Positions 550 through 51,424 of a stretch of DNA of 64,000 nt are shown here, in pieces. The stretch comes from Metellina segmentata. Its lineage: Eukaryota > Arthropoda > Arachnida > Araneae > Tetragnathidae. How positions within the stretch are numbered: position 1 is the first letter of the stretch; the number at the start of each line of letters is the position of its first letter. The notes below the pieces were generated by a model. It ran no database searches, was not told the origin of the DNA, and saw nothing but the letters and a program-made list of their open reading frames with translations. The stretch spans positions 87,518,377 to 87,582,376 of the forward strand of contig OX375878.1 of the NCBI GenBank assembly GCA_947359465.1, given 5' to 3'. Made by a program: the position numbers and the translations under genes.

Positions 550-1430
550 TGAAAATTGATCTGATTATATATAGCTGAACGATACAGCTACAGTTCTGAG
601 AGAGCAGCGAGAAAGAGGATCTCTGGGGACTACTATGTACTAAATTCACTTTGAGGAACAGTATGGGTGAGTATTTACACTGATAAATAGATTTTTGGGA
701 AAATATATAACTGAATGTATTTACAATAATAACAAATTTTGGGGGATATGATATTTGAGTATTTACACGGTGCAAAACAGTTTATCCGAAGATCCTTTTT
801 ACGTATTACTGAACCATACAGCTAATGTTCTGAGGGAGCAGCGAGAAAGGGGAACTCTTGGGACTACTATGTTCTAAATTGACTTTTAGTAACAGTATAA
901 GTGAGTATTTGCACTGACAAATAGATTTATGGGATATGATATGACAGTGTATTTACAATAACAAATTCTGGGGTACATGATATTTGTGTATTTACATGGT
1001 GCAAAACAGTTTATCCGCAGACCCTTTTTACGTATTGCTGAACCATACAGCTAATGTCCTGAGGGAGCAGCAAGAAAGGGGAACTCTTGGGACTACTATG
1101 TTCTAAATTCACTTTTAAGAACAGTGTAAGTGAGTATTTACACTGACAAATAGATTTCTGGGATATGATATGACAATGTATTTACAACAACAACAAATTC
1201 TGGGGTATATGATATTTGAGTATTTACACGGTGGAAAACAGTTAATCCGAAGACCCTTTTTATGTATTGCTGACCGATACAGCTGAGGTTCTGAGAGAGC
1301 AGCGAGAAAGGGAATCTCTTGGAACTTTTAGGAACAGTGCGGGTGATTATTTACACTGAGAAATAGATTTCTGGGATATATGAATGAATAAATTTACTAT
1401 GATAACAAATTCTGGGGTATATTCATTCAC
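550..1430 (-). repeat. tandem repeat, ~235-bp unit, about four copies
   Basis: The landmark 'gagagagcagcgagaaag' and its variants recur near 598, 834, 1064 and 1293 (spacings about 229-236 bp). Each is followed by 'gtgagtatttacactga' and then 'ggatatgatat'. Copies are clearly related but differ by substitutions and small indels. They sit between the Helitron helicase fragment and the 3' terminus, so they are probably an expanded tail of that element. Confidence 0.8.
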
Positions 1431-10500: not shown

Positions 10501-13500
10501 ATACATGTTTAGCTTACTTAAACGTTCATTATAGTCGAAATTTGCTAGCCCCTTTATTATTTTTGTAGCTCTGTGCTGAACCCTTTCAATTGATTCTATG
10601 TCCTTTCTCATATATGGAGCCCAGAATTGTACAGCATATTCTAGATGTGGTCTTACTAAACCCTTATATAATGGCAAGATTATATTCTTATCCCTTGAAG
10701 TTACAGTCTTTTTAATATACCCCAATAACCTATTAGCCTTTTTACCCGCAGCTGAACATTGGTGACCCATTTTAAAATCCCTGTGAATTATCACCCCAAG
10801 ATCCTTGACTGTTTCTCCCTCCTTTACCTTTACTCCCTGCAGACAGTACTCGGCTCCACTATTCCTGTAACCCATATGCAGAACTTGACATTTCCCTACA
10901 TTAAATGACATACCCCATTTTACAGCCCATTCGGATATCTTATCAAAATCCCCTTGTAAATTTTCTATCTGTAACTTGGTATCCACTGTCCCCCATATTT
11001 TTAAGTCATCTGCAAATATACTGATTCTATTCTTGATCCCCTGACCTATATCATCTATGAAAATTATAAATAAAATTGGTCCCAAAACTGATCCCTGAGG
11101 CACCCCACTTATAACTTCTGTCCACTGTGAATAATTTCCTTTTACCTGCACTCTCTGCTTTCTACCCAATAACCAGTTCTTTATCCATATTAATGTTTTT
11201 CCCTGAATCCCCAGCCTTTCCAATTTAAACAGTAATGCCTCATGAGGTACTTTATCAAAAGCCTTTTGAAAATCTATGTACATGATATCCACACTGCTCT
11301 TATTATCCAGCTCCTCAGTAATTTTTTCGTAGAACTTCAAAAGGTTTGTAGAGCAGGATCTGCCCTTCCTAAACCCATACTGATTCTCTGATAACAGTCC
11401 CCCCTCCTCCAAGTATAACATTATATGCTTTTTTAACAGAGATTCAAATATTTTGCAAATTACTGATGTTAGACTTACTGGTCTATAGTTGCCCGGATCA
11501 CTTTGTATTCCCTTTTTGAAAATTGGAGTTATGTTGGCCAACTTCCAATCCATTGGCACCCAACCTGTGCTATATGTTGAATTAAATATCGTGTGAATTA
11601 CTTCCCCCAGTTCTTCCGCGCATTCCACTAGTACTCTCGGATAAATATCGTCTGGCCCTGGTGCTTTAGATGGCTTAATTCTTTTCAACTGATGTACTAT
11701 TTCTTCCCTGTTGAATTTGCATTCTTTAATTATACCCCCTGCAAAGGCTCCATCCTTGGGGTCCTTTTTTAAACTATAGTTACCATTGAAAACCCCCAGA
11801 AAAAAGTCATTTAACACAAATAATGATCCAGGATAATGATGGATCACCAGGATAATGATGAATGGATAAGGTATTTTACTATTAAAAAAATTACAATGGA
11901 TAATAAATAATCAAAAGTTAATAGTTAAAAGTAAAGAATATATTTGTCTTCAATTTAAATATTTATAAAATACTGAAAATAAAACATCATTTTCCTGTCT
12001 TGACATCATTGACTTGGTATGTTAAAGGCAGGCAATGATGTGGCCAAAGGCAATGATGTGGCCAGGATAATGATGAAATAGGCTTGTTCAGGGCTTAATG
12101 GATGAACCCTTAAAAATTTCAGTTTGAATTTCACACACACATTTAAGAAATATCTTTTATACACTTGATAATAATAAAAATTAAAAATTTACTACAAACA
12201 TTTAATTTTTATCAAAGCCAGGAAAATGATCTTCAATATACATAAACCTTGAACTCTGAACTTGTATGTGCTGACCAAAAAAAAAGTTGATAACTTTTCA
12301 AAATGGCAGTTATTTATTTAAATAACCTCAACCCCAGATTACTTGAAAAGTATTCTTTTAACTCAGTGCTGTCATCTATTAATTGCCCACATAATGATAT
12401 CTGAGATGCCAGGAAAATGATGATATTACTTGGGACAATAGTTATTGAAGTTACTTTTGGAAATTTTTGCAATATTATTTCCATTATTGTAACTAATAAC
12501 CTTTCAAATGTATAAAGAAGCAGAATAAATTATTTACAAGAATATATAAATAAATATTAAAACCCTAACGAATGAAGAAATTGTAAAATTTCACCCAGGG
12601 ACATGCCAGGACAATGATATAATATTTTAAAAATATATAAAATAAAAAAATATGTCATTAATTTTCTAATTCTGTAGCTTATAAAAGAGATCCTAAACTA
12701 TTCTTGAAAGTTGACAAAATCTTCAGAGTGATAGAATTCTATAAATTTTGAAGGGACATGAATTTTGCCTATTTTGCAAGAATGACCCTTATATATCATA
12801 TATCTGCATCTTGTTCTTCGTCATTCTGAATAAAAAGTTGTCCTTTTTATCAACTGTCATAGTTCGCACAAAACTGAAACTGTAGCGTTGAACAATACTC
12901 AGTTTGAGATAAATTGTCATTAAATGTTAAATAAATAACAGTTCAAAATTAATTTTATCTTAAAATTTAATAGAATACTGTAACTAGTCCATTTTTACAT
13001 TTATTACATGTTCTTTTCAAATTTGCTGACTTCACTGAATTTCTTGATTTTTTTTTTCACTGAAACGCCCAGCGTTCTCAAATGTGAGGAGGGGCTGTAA
13101 TTTTAAAACAAAATCACAAATTGTTTGAATTTTAGTTTTTTTGCATTCAAGGGTTCATAAATACATAGATTTGAGATAATCATGAAAATATTTTGAGCAG
13201 AAATAATTCGGCCGTTAATAGGTTAGTGATCGCCAAAATAGAAACTTAGACTAAAGAATAAAAAAGAAGCCAGGCAAAATTTTTTATTTGTTTTGTTTAG
13301 CAGGAATTGTTTGTGCTCAGGAAATGAGAGGCAAAATAAATTTAGAATCTGATCTCTACACTGTTGCTATTCTAAGAACATGGTTCCCACACCTTTATCC
13401 AAAATAAATTCAAGGACTTTTAAGGACTTTTCAAAACCAAAAAAAATATTTTTCAAGGACCTAAAATTTTTTATAACGACCTAAAACAAGGCATACACAA

Positions 13501-16500
13501 AAGTTGTCACTTAAAAAGAAAAATATAAAAAAATAATAATAATTTTTTTATACAACTGTTAGTCAAAAAAGGGAAAGGTTATTGTCACTTTTGGGAACAA
13601 TTTGGATTTTCTTTTCTCACAGAACCTGATTTTTTTTTGTTGCAGAGTGGGCTTCTTGTTTCAATGCTAACTTTCAGGCTACTTGCACTCATATCGATTT
13701 CCGTCGTGCGATAAAATATCGTACGATAAATTCTTTTGGTGGCACGAAGAGTATGAGAAGCGGCCGTCTTAATGGAGACCAGAAGTGTCAACTTAGACGG
13801 ATAGCCATACTGTGGAGATCTAGACCTAGTATTATAAGTATATCACATAGTGTCAAAGCGTGAAACACCGGTTTCATTCAGAATGAGGCTCAAATGGCAC
13901 ACATGCTGTGGAGGAAACTAGTCTGGACAATTTCCAATGCAAGACGAAATTACACAATTATGTACTTGTTAAAAAAATCAAGTACTTTCAAGGACTTTTC
14001 ACCAAGTACCGTAATTTTCAAGGGCCCCTAGTTAGGAAAAAAGAATTCAAGGACTTTTAAGGACTTTTCAAGGACCGTGGGAACCCTGAAGAAAAACAAA
14101 TAACAATGCCAAACATTAATAAAAAAATGTTCTAGATTAAATTTTAAAATTCAGGATTTTCAAAAAATTAGTTGTTGTTTCGAATCTCCTATGCTAGACC
14201 AAGTCCATGAGTCCGTGGATATGCAGAAAGTCACAAATCAGGAGGGGATCCACTAGGAGATCCTCTCTAGACACCCCGATGCAGTTCAAGAGATGAGAGG
14301 GGCAGGCCTGCACAGTGTTGCATTTAGGGCAGATAGAGAAGGTCTTGTGACCCTGAACAAATCTAAGACACCTAGTATGTCCACTGATGGGTCTAAAAAT
14401 AGTGGTTTGCCGGGAGGCGTCACCCTGAAAGGACAAGGCGCCATCAGGTTTTTTCATATTTTACCAGTCATGTGAGGGAAGAGTTCTCCAAATGTGAAGG
14501 TTCTGGATATTTTTATTGTGACTTGAGAAAAGTACCTGTAGAGAAAAGTCAAAGCAGAGGAGTTGATGGGTGTGGGAATGTCAGTAAATTCCTTTGCCAG
14601 TCTGTCAGCAGTATCATTTCCCATGACTCACACTTGAGAGGGGATCCACTGCAGGAAGATCTCATGGTGTTTGGATAGCCGTCGGAGGTTGTCCAGGATG
14701 GAAATCGTGATTTTGTCTCCAACACTAGGCCAGTTGTTCAGATGTTGAATGGCACTGCGACTGTCAGTCATAATCCAAATGTCGTTGAGAGTGCAATTCC
14801 CTCTCAACCCGCAATTAGCTCTGACCTGAAGACAGAGCAAAAATCTGGGTTTTTAATCTTCAATTCGACAGGAGATGGGTAGGTTCTGATGTAGACCCCA
14901 CTTCCGCAGTTATTAAACTCGTTTTTACTTCCGTCAGTGTATATCAGCAATACCCAGGGGGAATGTTATTTATGGTTTCAAGAGCAACCAAATGCCAAAG
15001 AAGTCGAAAAGTTTTATGATCAGTTTATTTCTCCAGACTATCAAAAGCCTTTGTCAAGTCCAGGAATGCTGCCACAGTGTGGTTTGTAGGCCTTAGGTTC
15101 CGAGTCTCTAACACGTTGTCCAAAATAAAGTATCTGATCCACAGTACTGTGTCCTTTTCTAAAACCGAATAGTTCTTTTGGTAGTAAATTTTTGGACTTC
15201 AAATAAAAGGCCAGTCTTTCCAAAATCATCTTCTCCATGACCTTACACGAAAAACTGGTAAGGGCTATGGGTCTGTAACTCTCAGGAGTACCAGCCTTCT
15301 TGTTTGGTTTCCTAATAGGGAAAATTGTTGCCTTTTCCCAATCTTGGAATTCTACCAAGCTTCCAAGACAAATTACAGACTCCCAGCAGTCTCAGTTTAC
15401 CACCCAAACCAAGTCACCATCATCTGCCCATGGATGTTATCAGGCCCTGGAGATTTAGTAGGATCAAGAGCTTTAAAAGCCCGTTCCAAATCCTGTAGTG
15501 TGAAAGGTCTCTGGAAAATAGGACTGCCCTGGTTTGTGCTACGACAGCCATGTAAGCCTTAAAAGCCCGTTCAAAATGAGTCAGGACAATGAGGAGTGAC
15601 AAGTCTCCTTGCTCTTCTCTCCATAGGCTTATTGTCTTCGGTGAAGGTCAGAGTATTCATCTTTTTGTAATATTTCCCCAATAAATCTGCCGTGACCTTG
15701 TCATTTGAGGTAACTTGTCCGTTCTCATCAAGAATGGAATTGCTCTCCTCGAATTGAGGTTGTTTTGTGCTAATATTTTTAGCAAGTTTCCATATTTTAG
15801 AGTTTGGAGTTGTCCCTCAAACTTCACAAAATAAGTACCCGTGTGTCAGGATTGTAAGTGGTATAGATCGTTTGAAAATAGACACATTCATAGTAGAGAT
15901 TACATACTTTTGGAATTAATGTTTTCCGTGTAACCCTGTGTTTGATCTGCGATAAACAATATTGCTAATATTATAGGAAAAGCCTGTGCCAAATCTTTCC
16001 CAATTAAAATAATTGTCAAAGGGTTTAAGGTGACAGAAATTTGCCCAATAGAAAATATATTAAGCGGTGACTTCCAAGCACGTTATATTACTGATCAACA
16101 ATGATCATCCAATGGTACCAAAATCTTAAAAGATAATAACTGCTTCATATTCCCCTGATTTACCTTTTAACCATAGGTGATGTACCTAGAACACCCAGTT
16201 TGGATCACAAAAAATCATTTGTAACATTACCCCATAAAATAATTCAAGCTTATTTAAAAGCTGTTCCAAGAAAAGAAAAGATGGAAGGTGAAAAGAAAGA
16301 ATCCGAACATAAACAGAAACTAAGAAGTGTTAAACCTAAATATCTTCTATGAGATAAAAGTAATGTTCTGATGAGGACAGGTGAAGAATTGATTTTACAA
16401 GATACTCTTGGAACCTCATAGAAGTGATAATGGAAAGGAAGCTTTTTTTTTTAGACAGGTGTGGACAGGAAATGTAAAGGAAGGATCAGAACATAAACTG

Positions 16501-19500: not shown

Positions 19501-22500
19501 GTATTAGCTTAGTAGATACAAAAATACCGAGTTTTAATTTTTTTGGACCTTTCGTTTTTGAGTTATACATTTTTGAAAAATTCAAAAACACCAGTTTTTA
19601 GGAATGTTTTGATATATTTAAAAGCACGTAACTTCAAAACCGTTTGTCCTAGAAAGCTCAAATTTGTGCCATTCTCTTTAGATTTAAAAGGGCTTTAATT
19701 TAACATATAGCTTGGGTGTACCACATCAGTTTTTATATATTTTTTTTTAACTAAAAAAAAATAAAAAATTGTAAAAAAACAAAAATTGGAATTTTTAATT
19801 TTGATGAAAGAAATATATTTTATACTAAACCTAAATAGTAAGGTGTGTACAAAGTTTCATGATGGTATTCCGATGGTGTCATATTAAAAAAAATTTTTTT
19901 ATCTGAATCAAGACGTGTGAAAATTCTGTTAATTCGTGACTTGTTACCCTAGATAAAAATTAATCTCTTAAGCAACACTATTGTATTTAAATTTCATTTA
20001 CCCTATTTTATTTAAACAACAAATTCAACTTACTTTACATTCAAGGAACAGATTTTTTTCTTCTTTTAGCACTAGAAATTAGTAAATGTGAGTTCTCTTC
20101 TTTGCCAAAACTTGTGCTGCCTCGGCCATCTCATCTGCTGGAACTCGATAGGTTCTACCTGTTGAAGTGGTTGGATGTCATGTGCATAAAATATTGCTCA
20201 TCGGCAGTGCTAAGGTATCTGCTCTCCTAGGATTTGTGTATGATAGCAATGGCCATTTTGGGTGAAGAAAGGACACAAGAATTTCCTTTTCAACTTCGTC
20301 TTTTGAGTCAACATGCGCCAACCATCACTCTCTATCGTAAGCACAAGGGACAAAACCCACAATTTCTTCAAATGGAATGTCATCATTACCAGGGATAATT
20401 TGTACCCTATGTGCTTCTGAGTCATCAAAAAATGAGTAGACTTTGGTTTTGACACTATTTATTTAGATCTAGAAGAATGAAGGCATGAAATTTACGGGTC
20501 CCTGAGACTGTAACAGCTTTTTCAAATCATGGTTTTAGAATCTTTTCTTCATTTATATACTCTTCATTGGTTACATAAAAAAATGTGATGGATAACAAAC
20601 TTTTCACACCCTGCTGAAAAAGTGTTAGAATTTGATTATCTAATGGATTTTGGAGGCTGGCTTTGGCGGCAAGCCTTTTTGCTGTACCCCTTCATCACAA
20701 ACTCCCTTCTAATTTTCAAATTTGGTGTCAACACACATACTGTCGTAGTTCATGCTTTTCAGAAAAGTCATAGTCCAGAAAGTTAATCCTGTCTGAGAAA
20801 TTATATGCCAAATCATTAGTTAGATATTTGAAAAAGCTGTACTATTTTCCAGATGGTTCAGCTGCGCAGTGCATAATTCATAAGCTGTGGCACTTTTATG
20901 CCACATCATATGGGAAGCGAATTTGTGATGGAGTAGGGAATATGGTAAAAATGCTTGCTGCTAAAGCCAGCCTCCAGAATTTATTACAAAACCAAATTCT
21001 AACACCTTTTCAGTGTGAATATTTGCCATCCATCACATTTTTTTATGTAACCGATGAAGAGTATATAAATAAAGACAAGATTCTAAAACCATTCTTTGAA
21101 AATGCTGTGGCAGTCTCAGGGACCCATAAATTTCATGTCTTCATTCCTTTAGATCTAAATAGGGTCAAAACCAAAATCTACTCATTTTCTGATGACTCAG
21201 AAACACATAGGGTACGTACAAATTATCCCTGGTGATGATGATATTCCATTTGAAGAAATTGTGGGTTTTGTCGCTTGTGCTTACGATAAAGAGTGATGGT
21301 TGGCGCATGTTGACTCAAAAGACGATGTTGAAAAGGAAATTCTTGTGTCTTTTCTTCACCCAAAAAGGCCATTGCTATCATACACAAATCCTAGGAGAGC
21401 AGATACCTTAGCACTGCCGATGAGCAATATTTTGTGCACATGACATCCAACCACTGCAACAGGTAGAACCTATCAAGTTCCAGCAGATGAGATGGCCAAA
21501 GCAGCACAAGTTTTGACAAAGAAGAGAACTCACATTTACTAATTTCAAGTGCTAAAAGAAGAAAAAATCTGTTCCTTGAATGTAAAATAAGTTGAATTTG
21601 TTGTTTAAATAAAATAGGGTAAATAAAATTTAAATACAATAGAGTTCGTTAAGAGATTAATTTTTATCTAGGGTAACAAGTCACGAACAGAATTTTCACA
21701 CGTCTTGATTCAGATAAAAAATTATTTTAATATGATACCATCGGAATACCATCATGAAACTTTGTACACACCTTACTATTGAGGTTTAGTATAAAATATA
21801 TTAAAAAATATATAAAAAAAATTATTTTAATATGATACCATCGGAATACCATCATGAAACTTTGTACACAACTTACTATTGAGGTTTAGTATAAAATATA
21901 TTTCTTTCATCAAAATTAAAAATTCCGATTTTTGTTTTTTTACAAAAAAAAAATAATTTTTAGTTTAAAAAAATATATAAAAACTGATGTGGTACACCCA
22001 AGCTATATGTTAAATTAAAGCCCTTGTAAATCTAAAGAGAATGGTACAAATTTAAGCTTTTTAGGACAAACGGTTTTTGAGTTACGTGCTTTTAAATATA
22101 TCAAAACGTTCCTAAAAACTGGTGTTTTTGAATTTTTCAAAAATGTATAACTCAAAAACGAAAGGTCCAAAAAAATTAAAACTTGGTATTTTTGGTCATA
22201 TTGGTGAGTAGAACACAATCACTAAATATGATACATTTTGAAAACCTCAAGGTTTAAAATAATTTTTTTATTGGTTGATTTGATGTGGAATTACCCTAAA
22301 GCTTTTACAAAGTGGAAGAGGCAAAGCAACAAGTAATCGGAAGAATGCCTGTGGTTAGTGTGCAGGATTCTGAAAGATTTTACCTTTTAATATTATTGTT
22401 AAGAAAAACTGGTGTGATAAGTTTTAATGATCTGAAAACTGTCAATGGAACATTGTGTGAAACTTTTCAAGCGTCGTGCAAACAGCTCGGGCTTCTAGAT

Positions 22501-26939: not shown

Positions 26940-26976
26940 ATGCCACCCAAGTTTGATCCAACAGAAATTAAAACGG
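26940..26976 (+). CDS. RpL12: RpL12 exon 1
   Basis: 37 bp, ATG at 26940, encoding [12 protein letters not shown] plus the first base of Val. Donor ACGG|GTAAGTG, phase 1. Confidence 0.95.
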
Positions 26977-29900
26977 GTAAGTGTTAAATTTGATTTTGTG
27001 AAATATATTGTTTATATACTCGAAGATGAGCATGGTTATCCAATTTCCGATCTAAATACTTTTGTCGAAGTATTTAGTCACAAATGTTTCTTTTAATGAT
27101 GCGTTGGTGCATGCAAATAAATTTAACTTCTAAATCATCTTTATCGAGGTGCCGAACGTTTGTACTGTCAATATTACACGTGTGAATCACTGCTTTATTC
27201 TGTCGTTGAATATCACTTGTGATATTTTTGTGTTGCAGTATATTCACATATAACATATTAGTGTTAATTATTGGGGATGGCAAATGTACATATGTGTTGA
27301 TATTAGTATGCCTTAGTATGTATGCCTCTCTATGGTATTAGTTAGTATGCCTCTCTGGGTGCAGCTCCAACTTTTAAAATGTTTGTTGACTTAGGGGTAC
27401 TAGTCGTGAATTACCCTCTGATTGCTGCATTTGAATACAACTTGGTAATTTTTACATAATAGTTCTTTGGATGTGTAAAACTGCCTTTTCATGGGAATTG
27501 GCACACATAACTGTTCCATATGTCCTCGCCAGGAATTTCAGAACTTTTGACTACTGTAGCTGTTTTTCAGCCGACTCCAATGGATAATTTTTATTTATGT
27601 CCGTAAAATTTAGTTAAAAAAATGTTAGCAGGCTTTAATTCAATACCTATTTCTTTCACGATCACTTTAACAGCAAGCAGAAAGATGCATTTGTGATTCT
27701 TGATATCTGGAGCCCAACTGACTTCCTTTTGACAATTGCCCTTCACTTCTATATGCTTAACATACTATGTATCACCACCCGAGATTCATAATATTGAGCA
27801 GAACCTATGAGTACAAGTTAGAATATTTTGAGTATTTGCTATAAGGAACAGATCTTTTAATTTCTGTTCTGTATTACTAAAAACTTTGTGTTTTCTATTT
27901 ACTTGATATTTGGTCAAATTTTTGTGTTTTAATTATATTTTAATGAAAAAAGTATTGGAATATTTTGTTTTTAGTTTACCTCAGGGTCGTTGGAGGTGAA
28001 GTTGGAGCAACATCGTCTCTTGCACCTAAAGTTGGTCCCTTGGGTCTGGTAAGTTAATGTTCATAGTACTGTGTAAATTAAGTTCTGGTGTATTATAATT
28101 ACCATAAATTTAATAGCTATAGTGAAATGTTTTAAACAAAATATGTTTTGCTTGTTTGTTGTTAGTGTTCATATTTTATTTAATGAATTGCTTATATTAC
28201 AGTCTCCAAAAAAAGTGGGAGATGACATTGCTAAAGCAACAGCAGATTGGAAAGGTCTAAAAATCACAGTGAAATTGGTGATTCAAAATAGGCAAGCTGC
28301 AATTGAAGTGGTTCCTAGTGCAGCATCTTTAATTATTCGAGCTCTGAAAGAACCTGCAAGAGACCGAAAGAAGGTTAAACATGGTATGAAGATATTTTAA
28401 TTGTTATGTGGGTGGAGTGGTAGCATACAGGACGGTGGACAATATCTTGCCAATGTGGCAACCTTCAATTTATGCTTTTTTAAGACAACCCTATTTATTG
28501 TTTCAATGTGCAGTAGTGTTACGTCTTTTCTTTTTTGCTTGGAAGTATTGCGATTTACGTCTTTGTAAGTAAGTTGCACTTTTTTCCCCTTTTGTTCGTC
28601 GGTCACGTACCCAATATTAGCTATGGCGGCAGATGGTTTAACTATAGAATAAATACTTTGGTGGTTTTTTTTTTGGTAAAATGTATTTTGATATGGATGA
28701 TCTTGAGAGCTTGGTTGTAATTTAATTTTGTCAGAAAGTTGGATTAATTGCTACGAGTGTGAAATGTCCAGCATGTGGTAATGAGATGACTTTAATGTTA
28801 AGAAAGGATGTAGGCAATAGGTATGAGTGGAAGTGTTGAAAGTATGGACACAAAAGGTCTCAATCAGTGTGAAAGGGGACATGATTTGAAAGTAGTAAAT
28901 TGCATATCTGTAAGATTCTTCTGATTACATGGTATTTTGTGAGTGAAATGTCGATTACATGTGTTATAAATGAAATGGATGTGGCAACTCATAAGATGAC
29001 TGACTGGTTTAATTTTTGTAGAGAAGTTTGTATAAATGCTTGCTTGGAATGATTGGAGGGGTGGGAAAGACTGTTGAAATAGATGAGAGTAAGTTTGGAA
29101 AAAAGAAATTTAATAAAGTTAAGAGTGGATGGTAAATGAGTAGTTAGAGGAATAGAGCGAAGAAAAAATTGTGCTGGGGACAACAATTTTGTCTGACTGT
29201 TGGAAGTCTTATGCTGGCATGGATAATCTGGATGACAAAGAGGTCAAGGGTTATCAATGCCTAGCTACATGATGCCATACCAATGCTATTGAGGGTACGT
29301 GGGGTGCAGTCAAATAATCCCTTAAGGGAAGGCGTTTTGTTAAGGATCAGTTTGACGGCTACTTTGCTGAATACATTTGGGGGTGGAGGTGCAGAGGAAG
29401 TTTCTGGCCTTCGTCCACGAAATAAACAGAATTTACAAGGGGCAAGTTTCATTTTTCCATTTCTTTTTGCTGCCTTAACTACCAAAAAATTACTAACAAA
29501 TCCATACATGCAAAGGTTCACAGTGTGGATTTTGCTGCATGGACATGGCCATCTTGGTTTGGCGACAAAAAAAATGCCTTGGCGTCACTGTTATGTGAAT
29601 AAGTAGGTGTAAACTTAACTATTCACTGCTAATTTGTTGCCCAAGTATTCGGAAAATTGCTGTTACTGTTGACAGGCATGCATGCTATCGCAGGTGATCG
29701 GGACTGCTCCATGTTAACCCTTAGTTCTGTTTGGCATTGTTATTATACCTGTTGCCATCTATAACATTATAATTGATGATTTGAGGGGTTATGACTTGTT
29801 CAAATATTTTAGCTATTGGTGACAGCTTTAAAAAAAATTTGTTCCCTGTGATGTAAAATATGGTGCAGCTTTGATATTACGACTGATAGCATGCTTTTTA

Positions 29901-32900
29901 TGGTGACCAAGGAAGAATTTCTTTGCCGGGAAAAATAATGAATTAACCATAAGATATTTTAAAGTACAAGTCTATGTAACATGAATGAAAGAAAAAAAAT
30001 CACATTAATTCTATTGAACTAGTTTTGGCATGGTCCAATAATCGTAATGTTGCCATAATCCTAACAAAACAGTTGCTACAAAAAGTCTTTCTCAAAGCTG
30101 TACCTTTTATACTTCTCCAGTTGAGCTACTTTTTTCACTGTACCACAACTTTTTGTGTGTAGAGTAGTAATAGTAGCAATATCAATTCTTTTTCTTGAGA
30201 AAAATATATTTACTTTTGTAAAATATTCTCTTGAATAGAACAGGCAATCCATGAAGTTCCAAATAAATGTGAAAGTTATTGTATTATTTTTTTAAGATGT
30301 AGAGTACAAATATGCTAGGTATTTTGGAATCTATTATTTTGTCTACATTTGAAAATGTTGACATTATGCAAGCTCCAGCTAAATTAAGACAGACTGCTTG
30401 AGATTTAAATCTCCTTTCACTGTTGTCCACTATATCCTGTGCTCCATTTCTCATGGCCTAACCTGACCCTTGTGCTATAAAAATTCAATCTGTTCCTTTT
30501 CTTTAATTCAAAGTTTTCATATGCATTACCTGTAATTGTTTGTCAGGTTACAAATATAACGTTGCATACCAAACATGGCATCCTTTGTTGTCTTACTTCA
30601 GAATGTATAATATGTTGATGTAAAAAGGAAAATGCAAGCTTTCTCATGTCTGGATCAAAATTGTTCCGATTAAATATTAAAAGCATTAAGTATTATTCAT
30701 GCCCTACTTAGTTTCATATTAATTTGTAATCCTTCTGGTTTCCAGAATTACTAAAAAACCATGTGACTAATAATCTTATAACATTTGTTAAATAAATCTG
30801 ATTTATCCATACAACATAGATTAATCTAAAAGGTAGTAAAAAGTTTTCATAATTTCTTTCCCTTCAAATTTTCTTAAAATTTGTATTGTAAAAAAGTATT
30901 TTTTTTAAAGTAGATGTATGTTGCTTTTGATAAGCTAGCAAATATGCAGACCCAACTCCAAGAATTGCTCAATGTAACTCTTGGCGTACCTATACTGCAA
31001 AAAATAACATTGCAGCGCTATGTTTCACATCTTCCTAATAGATATGTTAACACACTCTGTAATGACATTAATTTGAAGATGCGCCATATTCCGTTTTTCA
31101 CACCTTTTCGAAAAGTCCATTTGAACACCTTTGCTCGTTTTGCAAGCTCAGCTTTCCTAATGCATTGAATTATATTTTATTCCCTAATTTTAAAAATTTC
31201 TGTCTTAGAGTTTTGTAGATGGAGTATAAATTTCAACAGCTTTCAAATCTGCAAAAAATTCTACACCAGATCAATGTAAAAAACATAATTTTCTCTAGTA
31301 ACTACCTTTTTTCGAAACACATTTGGGTAGGACTTTTTAACAATCGAAAAAGTGATCTGAAGCAGAAGTTTTTAAATTATTATAGGATGTATGAATTTAC
31401 TTGTTTCATGAATTAGAAGATTGGTGTTGTATCACTCTGCTTCCCTCATGAACAACTATCCGTTATGATTGCTAATCCTGCTTTCCAGTGTCAATAGAAC
31501 GCTTTTGATAAGCTAGCAAATATGCAGACCCAACTCCAAGAATTGCTCAATGTAACTCTTGGCGTACCTATACTGCAAAAAATAACATTGCAGCGCTATG
31601 TTTCACATCTTCCTAATAGATATGTTAACACACTCTGTAATGACATTAATTTGAAGATGCGCCATATTCCGTTTTTCACACCTTTTCGAAAAGTCCATTT
31701 GAACACCTTTGCTCGTTTTGCAAGCTCAGCTTTCCTAATGCATTGAATTATATTTTATTCCCTAATTTTAAAATTTTCTGTCTTAGAGTTTTGTAGATGG
31801 AGTATAAATTTCAACAGCTTTCAAATCTGCAAAAAATTCTACACCAGATCAATGTAAAAAACATAATTTTCTCTAGTAACTACCTTTTTTCGAAACACAT
31901 TTGGGTAGGACTTTTTAACAATCGAAAAAGTGATCTGAAGCAGAAGTTTTTAAATTATTATAGGATGTATGAATTTACTTGTTTCATGAATTAGAAGATT
32001 GGTGTTGTATCACTCTGCTTCCCTCATGAACAACTATCCGTTATGATTGCTAATCCTGCTTTCCAGTGTCAATAGAACGCTGATAAAGACTAGCTTACAT
32101 TAAAGGTAGTGCCAGCTCACATTTATGGCACCAATAACTGAGGGATGAGTCAAGTAACGTGCGTGATTGGGAATGTTTCAGCCATTGACCCCCAGTACAT
32201 AAGTTTATTTTCAAAAGGCATATTGAGTTCAATTTAACACGGGGATGTGCAAAATGAATTAAAATTAAAACTTCTTCACATTTCATGTTGGGGACATTAA
32301 AAAATAATTTCAAAGTTTCACTTTCAAATTAAATGTTTAATATTAGTTTATTTTGTTTGCTTACACTTTATATTTAGCTTATGTTTGCTGCACATGAAAA
32401 TGTGAACAGAGCGTTCTTCTCTATCTCAAAAGTATGGAATGTGATTGAATTTGCATCCTATTTTTAATGCAGGGTTCCCACGGTCCTTGAAAAGTCCTTA
32501 AAAGTCCTTGAATTCTTTTTTCCTAACTAGGGGCCCTTGAAAATTACGGTACTTGGTGAAAAGTCCTTGAAAGTACTTGATTTTTTTAACAAGTACATAA
32601 TTGTGTAATTTCGTCTTGCATTGGAAATTGTCCAGACTAGTTTCCTCCACAGCATGTGTGCCATTTGAGCCTCATTCTGAATGAAACCGGTGTTTCACGC
32701 TTTGACACTATGTGATATACTTATAATACTAGGTCTAGATCTCCACAGTATGGCTATCCGTCTAAGTTGACACTTCTGGTCTCCATTAAGACGGCCGCTT
32801 CTCATACTCTTCGTGCCACCAAAAGAATTTATCGTACGATATTTTATCGCACGACGGAAATCGATATGAGTGCAAGTAGCCTGAAAGTTAGCATTGAAAC

Positions 32901-35900
32901 AAGAAGCCCACTCTGCAACAAAAAAAATCAGGTTCTGTGAGAAAAGAAAATCCAAATTGTTCCCAAAAGTGACAATAACCTTTCCCTTTTTTGACTAACA
33001 GTTGTATAAAAAAATTATTATTATTTTTTTATATTTTTCTTTTTAAGTGACAACTTTTGTGTATGCCTTGTTTTAGGTCGTTATAAAAAATTTTAGGTCC
33101 TTGAAAAATATTTTTTTTGGTTTTGAAAAGTCCTTAAAAGTCCTTGAATTTATTTTGGATAAAGGTGTGGGAACCATGTAATGGCATTAAGTACAAAGCA
33201 ATAAATTAAGGCACCTAAGCACTCCATTCAGGATATTTTTTTCTATAAAATGAGATAAATAGTCCTTTTTGTGTTCGTAATGGGTAATATCTTCATCAAA
33301 TTCGTATTGGGAAAATATAAAAATTACAACAAAAATATTTATTTAAAGAGAATCGCATGTAAGGTATTGATCTTGTATAAAACTTTCCGCATATTTCAAG
33401 TCCGATCAATTTTTTACTCTAAACTTTAATGATCGTAAAGATAGAAACTTGTCTATGAAATAAAAAGAGCCTGTCAATACATGGGTCATGTGAACAGTGC
33501 AACAGAATCCTATATTGTTGAGTCAAAATAACTCTAAGTATTTGTTATTTTTCCTGTAATATGTGTAGAATGCAGACCAGTTCCAAGAATTGCTAAATGT
33601 AACTCTTGGCGTACCTATACTGCAAAAAATAACATTGCAGCGCTATGTTTCGTGTCTTCCCTAATGGATATGTTAACACACTCTGTTATGACATTAGTTT
33701 GAAGAATCCCATATTCTGAGAAGCAACTCTTAAGTATTCGACATTTTTCTGTAATATGTGTACAATGCTTGCAGACCAGCTCCAAGAATTGCTAAATGTA
33801 ACTCTTGGCGTACCTATACTGCAAAAAATAACATTGCAGCGCTATGTTTCGTGTCTTCCCTAATGGATATGTTAACACACTCTGTTATGACATTAGTTTG
33901 AAGAATCCCATATTCTGAGAAGCAACTCTTAAGTATTCGACATTTTTCTGTAATATGTGTACAATGCTTGCAGACCAGCTCCAAGAATTGCTAAATGTAA
34001 CTCTTGGCGTACCTATACTGCAAAAAATAACGTTGCAGCGCTATGTTTCGTGTCTTCCCTAATGGATATGTTAACACACTCTGTTATGACATTAGTTTGA
34101 AGAATCCCATAGTCTGAGAAGCAACTCTTAAGTATTCGACATTTTTCTGTAATATGTGTACAATGCTTGCAGACCAGCTCCAAGAATTGCTAAATGTAAC
34201 TCTTGGTGTACCTATACTGCAAAAAATAACATTGCAGCGCTATGTTTCGTGTCTTCCCTAATGGATATGTTAACACACTCTGTTATGACATTAGTTTGAA
34301 GAATCCCATAGTCTGAGAAGCAACTCTTAAGTATTCGACATTTTTCTGTAATATGTGTACAATGCTTGCAGACCAGCTCCAAGAATTGCTAAATGTAACT
34401 CTTGGCGTACCTATACTGCAAAAAATAACATTGCAGCGCTATGTTTCGTGTCTTCCCTAATGGATATGTTAACACACTCTGTTATGACATTAGTTTGAAG
34501 AATCCCATAGTCTGAGAAGCAACTCTTAAGTATTCGACATTTTTCTGTAATATGTGTACAATGCTTGCAGACCAGCTCCAAGAATTGCTAAATGTAACTC
34601 TTGGCGTACCTATACTGCAAAAAATAACATTGCAGCGCTATGTTTCGTGTCTTCCCTAATGGATATGTTAACACACTCTGTTATGACATTAGTTTAAAGA
34701 ATCCCATAGTCTGAGAAGCAACTCTTAAGTATTCGACATTTTTCTGTAATATGTGTACAATGCTTGCAGACCAGCTCCAAGAATTGCTAAATGTAACTCT
34801 TGGCGTACCTATACTGCAAAAAATAACATTGCAGCGCTATGTTTCGTGTCTTCCCTAATGGATATGTTAACACACTCTGTTATGACATTAGTTTGAAGAA
34901 TCCCATAGTCTGAGAAGCAACTCTTAAGTATTCGACATTTTTCTGTAATATGTGTACAATGCTTGCAGACCAGCTCCAAGAATTGCTAAATGTAACTCTT
35001 GGCGTACCTATACTGCAAAAAATAACATTGCAGCGCTATGTTTCGTGTCTTCCCTAATGGATATGTTAACACACTCTGTTATGACATTAGTTTGAAGAAT
35101 CCCATAGTCTGAGAAGCAACTCTTAAGTATTCGACATTTTTCTGTAATATGTGTACAATGCTTGCAGACCAGCTCCAAGAATTGCTAAATGTAACTCTTG
35201 GCGTACCTATACTGCAAAAAATAACATTGCAGCGCTATGTTTCGTGTCTTCCCTAATGGATATGTTAACACACTCTGTTATGACATTAGTTTGAAGAATC
35301 CCATAGTCTGAGAAGCAACTCTTAAGTATTCGACATTTTTCTGTAATATGTGTACAATGCTTGCAGACCAGCTCCAAGAATTGCTAAATGTAACTCTTGG
35401 CGTACCTATACTGCAAAAAATAACATTGCAGCGCTATGTTTCGTGTCTTCCCTAATGGATATGTTAACACACTCTGTTATGACATTAGTTTAAAGAATCC
35501 CATAGTCTGAGAAGCAACTCTTAAGTATTCGACATTTTTCTGTAATATGTGTACAATGCTTGCAGACCAGCTCCAAGAATTGCTAAATGTAACTCTTGGC
35601 GTACCTATACTGCAAAAAATAACATTGCAGCGCTATGTTTCGTGTCTTCCCTAATGGATATATTAACACACTCTGTTATGACATTAGTTTGAAGAATCCC
35701 ATAGTCTGAGAAGCAACTCTTAAGTATTCGACATTTTTCTGTAATATGTGTACAATGCTTGCAGACCAGCTCCAAGAATTGCTAAATGTAACTCTTGGCG
35801 TACCTATACTGCAAAAAATAACATTGCAGCGCTATGTTTCGTGTCTTCCCTAATGGATATGTTAACACACTCTGTTATGACATTAGTTTGAAGAATCCCA

Positions 35901-38900
35901 TAGTCTGAGAAGCAACTCTTAAGTATTCGACATTTTTCTGTAATATGTGTACAATGCTTGCAGACCAGCTCCAAGAATTGCTAAATGTAACTCTTGGCGT
36001 ACCTATACTGCAAAAAATAACATTGCAGCGCTATGTTTCGTGTCTTCCCTAATGGATATGTTAACACACTCTGTTATGACATTAGTTTAAAGAATCCCAT
36101 AGTCTGAGAAGCAACTCTTAAGTATTCGACATTTTTCTGTAATATGTGTACAATGCTTGCAGACCAGCTCCAAGAATTGCTAAATGTAACTCTTGGCGTA
36201 CCTATACTGCAAAAAATAACATTGCAGCGCTATGTTTCGTGTCTTCCCTAATGGATATGTTAACACACTCTGTTATGACATTAGTTTGAAGAATCCCATA
36301 GTCTGAGAAGCAACTCTTAAGTATTCGACATTTTTCTGTAATATGTGTACAATGCTTGCAGACCAGCTCCAAGAATTGCTAAATGTAACTCTTGGCGTAC
36401 CTATACTGCAAAAAATAACATTGCAGCGCTATGTTTCGTGTCTTCCCTAATGGATATGTTAACACACTCTGTTATGACATTAGTTTGAAGAATCCCATAG
36501 TCTGAGAAGCAACTCTTAAGTATTCGACATTTTTCTGTAATATGTGTACAATGCTTGCAGACCAGCTCCAAGAATTGCTAAATGTAACTCTTGGCGTACC
36601 TATACTGCAAAAAATAACATTGCAGCGCTATGTTTCGTGTCTTCCCTAATGGATATGTTAACACACTCTGTTATGACATTAGTTTGAAGAATCCCATAGT
36701 CTGAGAAGCAACTCTTAAGTATTCGACATTTTTCTGTAATATGTGTACAATGCTTGCAGACCAGCTCCAAGAATTGCTAAATGTAACTCTTGGCGTACCT
36801 ATACTGCAAAAATTAACATTGCAGCGCTATGTTTCGTGTCTTCCCTAATAGATATGTTAACACACTCTGTAATTACATTAGAAGTAAGAATGCAGACCAG
36901 CTTCAAGAATTGCAGTGCTGTGTTTTGTATCTTCCATGAAAGTACTTAGAAATATTGATAATTTTCCTGAAATATACTTATAATGAAGAGTGTCCAAGGA
37001 TTGCTAAATGTATGTGTCTTTGGTGCAAATAATAACACTCCAGTGTTTTGTTTCTTAATTAATATGTTAACTGTTCCACCTTTTGAAGAGTGCCCACAAA
37101 TCAGTATTTTAAATTTGATCCTTTTGTACCCAAATTTTTTTTAATTCACTTTATTGTTTTTAACCCGACTTTTCTGAATGCTTTTGCTTTTTGGTGCAAA
37201 TATTGTTTTAACCCTTTGTACTCAGATGTGTGCATCAAATTCTGCCTTTTACATTAGATTATGTGTTTACCATATCCATGAAAACTGAATAGATTTTGAA
37301 ATGCACTCTGTAGAACATATTGGTAACAGAAAATATATTAAGTCATTGACATCTACCATTTCCCATAATTTCTAACCCTGTTTCAAAACAGTAGATGTAT
37401 TTTTCTTAAAATATGGTTTAAAAAACATTGTAATTTAGAGCCGCTTGAGTTTTTGTTTCATATTAGTCCACAGATTAAGTTCCTTGTTTTATTTTGTTTC
37501 ATCTTGTTATTTCAAATGGTTTCGAAATAGTGCTTCAGAAATAAGTTGACTTCCTAAATACTAAATTTGTTTGTTCCAGTTAAACACAATGGAAACATCA
37601 GTTTTGATGATGTGTTACAAATTGCAAGGACTATGAGGACTCGTTCTATGGCTAGGAAGTTGCCTGGAACTGTCAAAGAAATTCTGGGAACATGTCATTC
37701 TGTTGGATGCACAATTGATGGAAGTCATCCAAGCGAATTGATTAAGCAAATAAATAGTGGAGAATTGGAAATTCCCGAGGTTGGTATATTTTAATCTTAC
37801 ATTGACTGCAGTAATTTGGTACTCTTTGTTATGTCATTTAAGTCAGCTTGGCTTAATCCTCTAAATGGTTTTGACCAGGTATTTCATCCATTTTTTATGA
37901 TGACATCAAGATCTTATCAGTTTTCAATTTATAACGAAATCTTGTCCATCAATAACTGGTCAGTTTTTCTAATGACTTGATACCACATCGAGACAAACAC
38001 CCATAGGGTTAAAGGTTACTTCATGTTTTGAAATTGTTAAAGCAGTATTGATGAGTTATTTGGGGTTCCTAATGCTCAAGCTTTATTGTACCTGCCTATT
38101 TCTATGAAATACCCTGTGTTATGTAGTAATTATGGTTGCTGACTGGATTTCTATGCAAACTATAAAAAGATGTTGAGACTACTGTAATAGTCTGATTTAG
38201 AACAGAAGATTAAACTGTTTGGGCCTAAGTATTGCTGGAGATTGTTTTTAATATTTTAAAGGTATCTATTTCATGGATGACAAAAAATTCTTTTACTGAA
38301 AGATGAAGTGAAAAAGCTTGTTTACCCATAAGTGGTAGTTAAGATTTGTATTATGTCTTTTAGACTGTTTTTCTTTATCGAACAGATGTCCTATCAAAAT
38401 TATCTGTGACATAACTTACGGTTATGTCACATACGGTACATAACTTACGGGGTGAGTGGCATGAGGTCAAGTATCTTGGAGTTTTATAGTGGACTAGGGG
38501 GCTTGCTACGCAACACTCCTTTTACATATGGCACTTGGTGTGCTTCGCAAACCAACATTCCTTTTGCAGAGTGAAACTATCTGAATAATTTGTATTATCC
38601 TGATTTCACTTTACGGTCCATCACGTCACAGCGAGGGCTTCGCCCCCTGCTCGCTTACGCTCGCCGACCCCCGGGGATTGCTACGCAAACCAATACCTCT
38701 TACGCAAGTGATTTCACTCTTTTTTGCTTTAACACTTAATGCACCCTAAACTAATAGCCGCATGAGTAAAAAAATCTTCTGCATCTTGTTCCCTGTACAA
38801 TTTTAAGTAAACCCTGTTAATCTCCAAACTTTACGATGTGTACTTTGTACATTCTCGGTAAACCGTCTGAGAAAAGAGGGAAAAAAGCGAGCCTTTTTCC

Positions 38901-49180: not shown

Positions 49181-51424
49181 TCAGTAATATTTCCTATTGT
49201 AATAATAATCCGTTGATAAAGTCTTTATGATTATAACTTTGCGAATGGGCTGTTGTTCTGTGCGGTTAAATCCAGATTTTGGCTTATTCTTATGACGGCG
49301 TGCTTTGTGTTTCAAAAGTTTCGCCTTTTCTCTGAATCGCCTTTCGCACAAATCACAAGCAAATGGCTTTTCACCTGTGTGTGTCAAGTAATGTCTTTGC
49401 ATGTTACACTTGTCTTTGAATCCCCTCTGGCAGATGTCGCATACGAAAGGTTTCACACCAGTATGCCCCAGCATATGACGATTAAGACGAGCTTTCTCAT
49501 CAAAGCCTTCCTTGCATAAATGACATGTATGTGGTTTCTCACCTGTATGCACCCTGTAATGCTTCTCGAGATCCTGTTTGTTTGTGAATGCTTCTCCGCA
49601 TTGATCACAAGCATAAGGCCGAGGACGTTTGTGGATCTGATGATGCACTTGGAGGCTATACTTTTGTGTAAACCTCTTGTTGCAGATTTCACATTTGAAC
49701 AACTTTTCTTTAGTATGGGTGACTTGATGCTTACGAAGAGTGCTCTTCTGAACAAAGGCTTTTTGACAGATGTCACAAACATGGTTTTTCTGACCTGTAT
49801 GGATCTGCAAGTGTTTTCTAAGGGTGCTTTTATCTTTAAACCTGCGGTCACAGTAATGGCAGTTGTGAGGTTTCTCTCCAGTATGGATTAAGAAATGAGT
49901 GGCGAGACTGCTTTTCTTGGTAAAAGCTTTACCACAAACGCTGCAAGCGTGAGGTTTCTCGCCAGTGTGGACAAAAACATGTTTCTGCAGGGCATTTTTT
50001 GTCATGAAACCCTTGTTACACACTTCACAGAAGAATGCTTTCTCTCCTGTATGTACCATGTAATGCTTTTGCAGGTCACATTTTCGCTTGAACTGCTTGG
50101 GGCACTGGTCACACCCAAATACCTGTGGTAAGCCAGGAGGTATATTCTGATCTTCCACAATGGGTGCCATTGTTTGATGAACAATATGAGTCAAAGGCTG
50201 TTGATCAACTGTAGTGTAAGGCTGTTGACCGATAATTGTGAATGTCTGATGTCCAATCTGTGCTAAAGTCTGATGTCCAATTTGGGTTAAGGTCTGATGG
50301 CCAATATGAGCAATCCCTTGTTGATCAACTGTCATTAAAGGATGCAAACCTTGTGGACCAATATTCAAAGCTTGGTGAACCATATGCGTCAATGGCTGGT
50401 CAATAGTAGCAAATGCTTGGGGATTTTCCAAGTACACTTGTTCAGTATGCATCAATGCTTGATCATGGGATCCACTGTTATCCGCAAAAGTCATATCACA
50501 ATGCTCAGCTTCAACCTCAGCTACTGCTTGTTCCATATCCACAGCCTGTTGATGCTGCTCTTCAGGTTCCACATCAATTTCATGCAAAATGGCTTCAGGT
50601 TCTGTAATTGGTATAACTATCTTTTCATCTGCTTCATCAGAATTTTTCTTTCCCTTTCCCTTGCCTTTTCGTCTTTTACTTTCCCTGTCTGCTGAATGCA
50701 CAAGATAGTGAGTGCGAAGCGTGCTCTTTTGAGCAAAACCTTTGTTGCATACCTCACAAATATGATTTTTTTCACCTGTGTGTGTGAGATAGTGCTTTCT
50801 CAGTGTTATCTTCTGAACAAATCCACGCTGACAGATGTCACAAACATGAGGTTTCTGCCCAGTGTGAATCAAGCTATGTTTTCTCAGTGTACTTTTGTCA
50901 GTAAAACCTCGATTACACACTTCACAAACATGAGGTTTATCACCTGTATGAATTAAGTAATGTGTCTGAAGGCTACTTTTCTGCGTGAAGCCTTTGTGGC
51001 AAACATCACATATGTGGGCCTTCTCACCTGTGTGGCCAGCATAATGAGCTTGTAAATCAGACTTTGATTTACAAGTTTTATTACAGATATCACACACATG
51101 TGCTGGGGAAGCTTGTTGAGCAGGTTGTTGCTGCTGTTCTTGTGGGACTTCTCGATAAATCTGAGTGTGTTGCTGAATATCTTCAGCACGGTATATTTGG
51201 GCATGTTGCTGCAAATCTTCTTCTCTGTAGATCTGAGTATGCTGAGGTATAAGATGCTCAGCATAAATTTGCTGTTGTACCGTGGGATCTCGGTACATTT
51301 GATGCTGTTGGATCACTGGCTCAGCATATATTTGATGGTGTTGCTGCAAACCGCGATTACCAAGATCTTGATAAGTTACGTCAACTCCTTGAGGACCGTA
51401 TGCTTGATGAATATAAAGGGCCAT
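49181..51424 (-). CDS. C2H2 zinc-finger protein, 15 fingers, single coding exon
   Basis: 747 aa in one frame from ATG 51424 (CCAATATGG context) to the stop at 49183-49181. Residues 1-108 are Gln/His/Tyr-rich with about five repeats of a QIYREEDLQQH-type unit. Fingers 1-5 span about 109-245, a linker about 246-430, fingers 6-15 about 432-711, then a short basic tail. Fingers have the C-x2-C-x12-H-x3-H form with TGEKP-like linkers, so it is most likely a nuclear DNA-binding regulator. The linker has a basic patch (KRRKGKGKGKK), an acidic part and about five IGHQT-type repeats. It is the only intact long gene in 40-64 kb. No KRAB, ZAD or BTB domain is seen. Orthologue and targets unknown. A non-coding 5' exon is possible. 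Confidence 0.9.
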   Translation of the reverse strand: MALYIHQAYGPQGVDVTYQDLGNRGLQQHHQIYAEPVIQQHQMYRDPTVQQQIYAEHLIPQHTQIYREEDLQQHAQIYRAEDIQQHTQIYREVPQEQQQQPAQQASPAHVCDICNKTCKSKSDLQAHYAGHTGEKAHICDVCHKGFTQKSSLQTHYLIHTGDKPHVCEVCNRGFTDKSTLRKHSLIHTGQKPHVCDICQRGFVQKITLRKHYLTHTGEKNHICEVCNKGFAQKSTLRTHYLVHSADRESKRRKGKGKGKKNSDEADEKIVIPITEPEAILHEIDVEPEEQHQQAVDMEQAVAEVEAEHCDMTFADNSGSHDQALMHTEQVYLENPQAFATIDQPLTHMVHQALNIGPQGLHPLMTVDQQGIAHIGHQTLTQIGHQTLAQIGHQTFTIIGQQPYTTVDQQPLTHIVHQTMAPIVEDQNIPPGLPQVFGCDQCPKQFKRKCDLQKHYMVHTGEKAFFCEVCNKGFMTKNALQKHVFVHTGEKPHACSVCGKAFTKKSSLATHFLIHTGEKPHNCHYCDRRFKDKSTLRKHLQIHTGQKNHVCDICQKAFVQKSTLRKHQVTHTKEKLFKCEICNKRFTQKYSLQVHHQIHKRPRPYACDQCGEAFTNKQDLEKHYRVHTGEKPHTCHLCKEGFDEKARLNRHMLGHTGVKPFVCDICQRGFKDKCNMQRHYLTHTGEKPFACDLCERRFREKAKLLKHKARRHKNKPKSGFNRTEQQPIRKVIIIKTLSTDYYYNRKYY

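What the first reader, a model, noticed from the sequence alone, without database searches (positions are those of the whole stretch)
33570..36890. Seventeen-copy tandem array of an H/ACA-type snoRNA inside an RpL12 intron
Exact 199-bp periodicity, near-identical units, and in each unit a two-hairpin, hinge, ACA architecture on the host sense strand. Intronic snoRNAs are normally single per intron because both ends are trimmed by exonucleases. Seventeen in one intron would need endonucleolytic release, recursive splicing or another route. It may be a dosage amplification of a guide RNA carried by a ribosomal-protein gene.
Basis: partly seen in the sequence, partly recalled or inferred. Interest (0 to 1): 0.88.

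Follow-up and report, generated by a model that had tools for sequence, protein, structure and literature searches.

The report
Seventeen-fold snoRNA array in one intron
In a spider, one intron of a ribosomal-protein gene carries seventeen near-identical tandem copies (plus two older ones) of what looks like a small guide RNA for modifying ribosomal RNA, an arrangement that raises the question of how so many guides could be cut out of a single intron.

Summary
33530-36881 is a 199-bp tandem array with 17 recognisable units, on the sense strand of RpL12 intron 3 (28384-37579) in a spider. The 127-nt core of a unit folds strand-specifically into hairpin-hinge-hairpin-ACA (z -3.3 sense, -0.8 antisense, +1.5 spacer).
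New here: two more cores at 30944 and 31522 lie in a separate 578-bp duplication. Core and the next 20 nt are conserved (118 of 127 core columns identical); the 5' flank is no better than shuffled. Two decayed relics follow the array. Two searches of the 1.67-Gb own assembly found matches at this locus only, so it is not a dispersed satellite.
At the register set by the fold, the 5' pocket best matches the LSU site equivalent to yeast 25S Psi2944 (snR37; 18/1000 shuffles as good), but with free register this is not significant. No clear target for the 3' hairpin; no Rfam match.
Best reading: an H/ACA snoRNA recently amplified inside one intron. Expression and release are untested.

The parts
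33530..36881 (+). 199-bp tandem array, 17 recognisable units
33570..33696 (+). first 127-nt H/ACA-like core (unit 1; ATGCAG start)
34366..34492 (+). representative consensus core (unit 5): 5' hairpin, hinge AAAATA, 3' hairpin, ACA-TTA
34493..34564 (+). representative 72-nt spacer, no stable fold (z +1.51), no strong splice donor
36754..36880 (+). last core (unit 17); homology to the unit ends soon after it
30944..31070 (+). older separate core copy A
31522..31648 (+). older separate core copy B, in the second half of a 578-bp duplication
36890..36935 (+). decayed core relic 1 (approximate ends)
36990..37090 (+). decayed core relic 2 (approximate ends)
28384..37579 (+). RpL12 intron 3 (9,196 nt), host of all copies found; ends inferred from protein match and GT/AG
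28203..28383 (+). RpL12 exon 3
37580..37776 (+). RpL12 exon 4 (coding part matched)

Best explanation
A genuine box H/ACA snoRNA gene, with no described family match, lives in RpL12 intron 3 of this spider. It has duplicated more than once there, and one copy with its 72-nt spacer was recently amplified to 17 units, most simply by unequal exchange. Shown by sequence: the array, the sense orientation, the strand-specific H/ACA-type fold of single cores, conservation of core (plus about 20 nt after it) but not of the 5' flank between two separately located sets, and no match elsewhere in the assembly at the sensitivity used. Inferred: the cores are co-transcribed with RpL12, bind the H/ACA proteins while still in the intron, are separated by cuts in the spacers (or partly left joined) and trimmed to about 127-nt RNAs. 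Also inferred: the 5' hairpin guides pseudouridylation of LSU rRNA at the site equivalent to yeast 25S Psi2944, and amplification raises guide dosage.
For: Array and copy numbers. Sense-strand fold z -3.26 (array unit 5), -4.81 (copies A, B), -3.92 (unit 17) against -0.81 antisense and +1.51 spacer. Hinge AAAATA lies 16 nt from the upper stem of hairpin 1, and ACA sits 3 nt before the core's assumed 3' end. Core 118 of 127 columns identical between unit 5 and copy A (0/1000 shuffles as good); 5' flanks of 72 nt score no better than shuffles (662/1000 for unit 5, 531/1000 for unit 1). None of the 10 core differences between array consensus and copy A falls in the right guide arm, H box or ACA box. 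Own-genome searches give 22 and 19 matches, all at this locus on one strand. At the fold-fixed register the top rRNA match is LSU ..GGGAACG[U]GAGCUGGG for the array guide (28.2; next 19.9; 18/1000 shuffles) and for the A/B guide (28.4; next 17.9; 18/1000); antisense rRNA gives at most 18.7 and 20.5. The site is a known Psi: 25S-2944, snR37 (PMC8307265 table); PMC2780460's table lists a Neurospora guide marked 'H' with snR37 and ACA10. Host is a spider: RpL12 87-89% identical to Stegodyphus, Argiope, Trichonephila, Parasteatoda.
Against: No Rfam family reaches its gathering score; a permissive scan of one unit gave 4 matches, all far below cut-off. No compensatory pair changes among 7 sequences, so structure rests on energy and one-sided changes. 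With guide register left free, 101 of 120 randomised guides score at least 28.2, and two other rRNA places score above this site for the real guide (31.4 and 29.4 against 28.4). The rRNAs scanned are from other eukaryotes, lack part of the LSU, and were fetched with a pattern that contains the site. No distinct target for the 3' hairpin. In naked 1.1-kb context the 3' hairpin's mean pair probability falls to 0.10-0.41 and the 5' hairpin's to 0.65-0.66 (about 0.95 each alone); copy A in 0.6 kb gives 0.23 and 0.73. The conserved block does not end at ACATTA: 17 of 20 columns just after it also match between unit 1 and copy A. The array consensus has lost one 3'-stem pair that copy A and unit 17 keep; unit 4 has a change in the guide arm. 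No expression data.
Confidence: 0.66

Rival explanations
1. Decaying snoRNA turned local satellite: a real H/ACA snoRNA once sat here, but the 17-unit array is a neutral by-product of unequal crossing-over and most units are not processed.
For: Units 2-16 differ by 0-1 changes, as expected of very recent amplification. Variable sites fall in the core (unit positions 55, 79, 117) as well as outside it (146, 159), so no selection is visible inside the array. Decayed relics show that copies here can die. The array consensus lost one stem pair. No match elsewhere shows spread.
Against: All 17 units and copies A and B give full-length core matches (model built from 7 of them), the listed unit differences leave an ANANNA hinge and the ACA in place, and no other copy was found that could supply the RNA.
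Confidence: 0.21
2. A simple intronic satellite whose fold resembles H/ACA by chance.
For: No Rfam match; no covariation; free-register target search not significant; conservation runs about 20 nt past the core; hairpin 2 weak in long context.
Against: Strand-specific fold in two separately located sets; 5' limit of conservation at the core start; hinge spacing of 16 nt and terminal ACA; sense orientation in a ribosomal-protein gene; matches confined to this intron.
Confidence: 0.11
3. Each copy lies in its own small intron with cryptic exons in the spacers, as in SNORD115/116-type arrays.
For: Known tandem snoRNA arrays lie in repeated introns (PMC11028025 passages).
Confidence: 0.02

Closest known systems
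Intronic clusters of box H/ACA snoRNAs in Drosophila (Huang et al. 2004; title seen in reference lists; paper not read)
   Same: By its title, arthropod H/ACA snoRNAs grouped in introns
   Different: From the title alone copy number and sequence identity cannot be compared; here 17 near-identical units stand in an exact tandem array
SNORD115/SNORD116, SNORD113/114 and rat Bsr tandem arrays (PMC11028025 passages)
   Same: Large local tandem repeats of a snoRNA with homogenised copies
   Different: Those are box C/D, in repeated introns of lncRNAs; here box H/ACA-like, all in one intron of a ribosomal-protein gene
sno-lncRNAs such as SLERT (PMC11028025 passages)
   Same: More than one snoRNA in one intron, where exonucleases can leave a snoRNA-ended long RNA
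   Different: Two snoRNAs there; 19 cores here; no RNA evidence here
yeast snR37 / human ACA10 / Neurospora NcACA15
   Same: Predicted target site (25S Psi2944 equivalent) and, for NcACA15, a table entry marked 'H'
   Different: No sequence-family match; target support is modest
Two-snoRNA intron of Plasmodium ribosomal protein S27a and plant intronic clusters (PMC2656528 passages)
   Same: Several snoRNAs in one intron, in Plasmodium of a ribosomal-protein gene
   Different: Two there, not a tandem array of one RNA

Membership tests
box H/ACA snoRNA | hairpin-hinge-hairpin-tail architecture | tested here: met
   MFE and centroid structures of unit 5, unit 17 and copies A/B, each core folded alone; weaker in long context, above all hairpin 2
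box H/ACA snoRNA | H box ANANNA in the hinge | tested here: met
   AAAATA after the first stem, 16 nt from its upper stem; the A-rich hinge makes a match easy
box H/ACA snoRNA | ACA three nucleotides from the 3' end | tested here: inconclusive
   ACA-TTA stands where expected after hairpin 2 in the 7 aligned cores, but the RNA's 3' end is assumed, not mapped
box H/ACA snoRNA | pocket complementary to an rRNA or snRNA uridine | tested here: inconclusive
   Fixed register 18/1000; free register 101/120 as good; 3' hairpin none clear
box H/ACA snoRNA | covariation or cross-species conservation of structure | tested here: inconclusive
   0 compensatory changes in 7 rows; only paralogues within one intron available
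box H/ACA snoRNA | accumulates as a small RNA bound to dyskerin, NHP2, GAR1, NOP10 | not testable with these tools
   no RNA data
snR37/ACA10 orthologue | sequence-family match | tested here: not met
   no Rfam hit at gathering score or near; that Rfam holds a model of this family is recalled
snR37/ACA10 orthologue | guides 25S Psi2944 or equivalent from the H-side hairpin | tested here: inconclusive
tandem snoRNA array | head-to-tail near-identical copies of a snoRNA-like unit | tested here: met
dispersed satellite or transposon | copies at many unlinked genomic places | tested here: not met
   all 22 and all 19 matches at one locus; the tool scored 3 candidates each and warns that counts can be lower bounds

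The most novel reading that the evidence does not exclude
The excised RpL12 intron matures, at least partly, into a multi-snoRNP RNA: with no endonuclease cuts, exonucleases would stop at the first and last H/ACA RNPs and leave a beads-on-a-string RNA of about 3.3 kb (array only) to 5.9 kb (copy A to unit 17) carrying 17-19 H/ACA RNPs, acting as a dyskerin-binding sink or a staged dosage reservoir whose output is tied to ribosomal-protein synthesis.
Probability: 0.15. Interest if true: 0.88.

Novelty: new variant of a known kind. Interest (0 to 1): 0.62.

Why it matters
The large snoRNA tandem arrays named in the review passages seen here are box C/D and sit in repeated introns. A 17-fold H/ACA array in one intron of a ribosomal-protein gene would be a natural test of how several intronic snoRNPs are separated, whether snoRNA dosage evolves by array expansion, and whether multi-snoRNA lncRNAs form. 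Unit-specific variants allow some copies' output to be read from RNA-seq.

Tried and rejected
Rfam at gathering score over the window: 0 matches; permissive scan of one unit: 4 matches, all far below cut-off. 3' hairpin target scan over 9 distances, 12 left-arm ends and two variants: many near-equal scores (best 29.5), none standing out. Free-register test of the 5' hairpin removed significance. Cryptic splicing per unit disfavoured by donor scores (the exon 1 donor was mis-indexed there and not scored). A 36-nt exact core pattern in viral contigs: 0. The first flank test used end-gap-free global alignment and a core shifted by one base; its 3' flank alignment joined only 4 letters and is dropped in favour of the local-alignment test. 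Literature: 10 paper searches listed no spider snoRNA array among the rows shown; several lists were capped and the library holds open-licence papers only. Papers seen as passages only: PMC8522698, PMC8351944, PMC3412847, PMC2653536, PMC2656528, PMC1821038, PMC1766470, PMC2780460, PMC8307265, PMC5932544, PMC2246290, PMC13228274, PMC12205218, PMC11028025; in PMC13140492 none of my terms occurred. Recalled, from no call: that human RPL12 hosts SNORA65, the canonical 14-16 nt pocket distance, box definitions of H/ACA RNAs, and anything on Huang et al. beyond its titles.

The composite guide (1/1000 shuffles) joins the array's and copy A's left arms and was made after the target was seen, so it is not used as independent evidence. 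The target itself was first guessed from memory (note) before the scan.
Full report
WHAT IS THERE. A 199-bp unit is repeated head to tail from 33530 to 36881 (period 199, 16.9 copies, 99% matches, no indels). A short anchor matches 23 times in the window, 17 of them at exact 199-bp spacing. Units 2-16 each differ from consensus by 0 or 1 base; one change (unit position 146) is shared by units 6, 10 and 13, another (159) by units 1 and 2, as unequal exchange would leave. Unit 1 differs mostly before its core; unit 17 has 4 changes in the core and 40 after it.

HOST. tblastn of a recalled human RPL12 protein finds four RpL12 segments on the + strand at 26940-26972, 27959-28048, 28203-28382 and 37579-37776. 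Read with the sequence, exon 3 ends ..AAACATG|GTATGA (28383) and exon 4 begins after TTCCAG (37579), so intron 3 spans 28384-37579, 9,196 nt. The joined product matches Ribosomal_L11 domains. In the list of the best 120 of 5,253 proteins, after five longer records, the top named matches of normal length are spiders: Stegodyphus 89%, Argiope 88%, Trichonephila 87%, Parasteatoda 87%. The array is on the sense strand.

THE CORE. A 127-nt core starts at TTGCAG and ends at ACATTA. Folded alone it gives two hairpins, an A-rich hinge and a 3' ACA tail: -31.9 kcal/mol, z -3.26, 0 of 200 shuffles as good. Copies A and B give z -4.81 (0 of 200), unit 17 z -3.92 (1 of 200), the antisense strand z -0.81, the spacer z +1.51. 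The hinge AAAATA lies 16 nt after the upper stem of hairpin 1. Against this, in a naked 1.1-kb stretch of array the mean pair probability over five units is 0.65-0.66 for hairpin 1 and 0.10-0.41 for hairpin 2, from about 0.95 each alone; bound proteins could change that, which is inference.

MORE COPIES. They sit in a 578-bp tandem duplication. Unit 5 and copy A agree at 118 of 127 core columns (0/1000 shuffles as good). Their 72-nt 5' flanks align no better than shuffled sequence (662/1000; with unit 1, 531/1000). The first 20 columns after the core still match (17 of 20 with unit 1; 0/1000 for the first 25 nt); over the whole 72-nt 3' flank the signal is weak (42/1000 with unit 1, 162/1000 with unit 5). 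So conservation starts at the core and ends about 20 nt after it, roughly what a conserved RNA would leave. The ten core differences between consensus and copy A spare the right guide arm, H box and ACA box; within the array, unit 4 has a change in that guide arm and unit 17 one in the hinge. Compensatory changes are absent in 7 rows (96.2% of cells paired), so covariation neither supports nor refutes. After the array two decayed relics remain near 36890-36935 and 36990-37090; the covariance search does not list them at E up to 5.

NOT A DISPERSED SATELLITE. The window's own assembly has 1.665 Gb in 173 contigs. A 221-base array query gave 22 matches, all between C6:87549321 and 87555257; a 151-base copy-A query at E up to 10 gave 19, that is 17 + 2, same place and strand.

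TARGET. At the register fixed by the upper stem CCAAGA/TCTTGG, a scan of eukaryotic SSU, 5.8S and two LSU parts ranks LSU GGGAACG[U]GAGCUGGG first for the array guide (28.2, next 19.9) and for the A/B guide (28.4, next 17.9), each matched by 18 of 1000 shuffled guides; antisense rRNA reaches 18.7 and 20.5. This is the site of yeast 25S Psi2944, snR37: the table in PMC8307265 lists Um2921, Gm2922, Psi2923, Psi2944, Am2946 and Cm2948, which fit the letters of the fetched LSUs (T, G, T at 23, 22 and 21 before the U; A and C at 2 and 4 after it). PMC2780460's table lists the Neurospora guide with 'H', snR37 and ACA10. But when registers are free, 101 of 120 randomised guides do as well and two other places outscore this one; the rRNA came from eukaryotic rDNA in other collections, fetched with a pattern holding the site, lacks a middle part of LSU, and is not the spider's. 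I rate the target as suggestive. The 3' hairpin has no clear target.

HOW IT MAY WORK. Animals mostly have one snoRNA per intron, but intronic clusters exist, and when two share an intron exonucleases can leave a snoRNA-ended sno-lncRNA (PMC11028025 passages). Drosophila mfl keeps one per intron (PMC1821038 passages), whereas a Drosophila paper title announces multiple intronic H/ACA clusters. Inference: spacers, without stable fold or good splice donors, are cut by an endonuclease and trimmed; or the intron stays a chain of RNPs. Neither is tested.

VERDICT. Real feature; H/ACA snoRNA identity likely but unproven; the array is a new variant of known tandem snoRNA arrays. The large arrays named in the review passages are box C/D in repeated introns. 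Ten paper searches listed no spider case in the rows shown.

Noticed in passing
window about 30923-32080: 578-bp near-perfect tandem duplication inside the same intron, each half carrying one older snoRNA-like core (far end by eye).
   Followed up: yes
window 570-1326: Another tandem repeat, 229 bp x 3.3 copies, 87% matches.
   Followed up: no
window 10225-11847 (-): Reverse transcriptase ORF, 540 aa, PF00078; a second RT-like fragment at 15041-15358 (-) (by eye).
   Followed up: partly
window 49181-51424 (-): 747-aa C2H2 zinc-finger open reading frame.
   Followed up: partly
window 21716-21902: 100-bp x 1.9 tandem repeat, 98% matches.
   Followed up: no
L002-L008: Contigs titled as bacterial MAGs hold eukaryotic rDNA, i.e. 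probable contamination in a prokaryote collection.
   Followed up: partly
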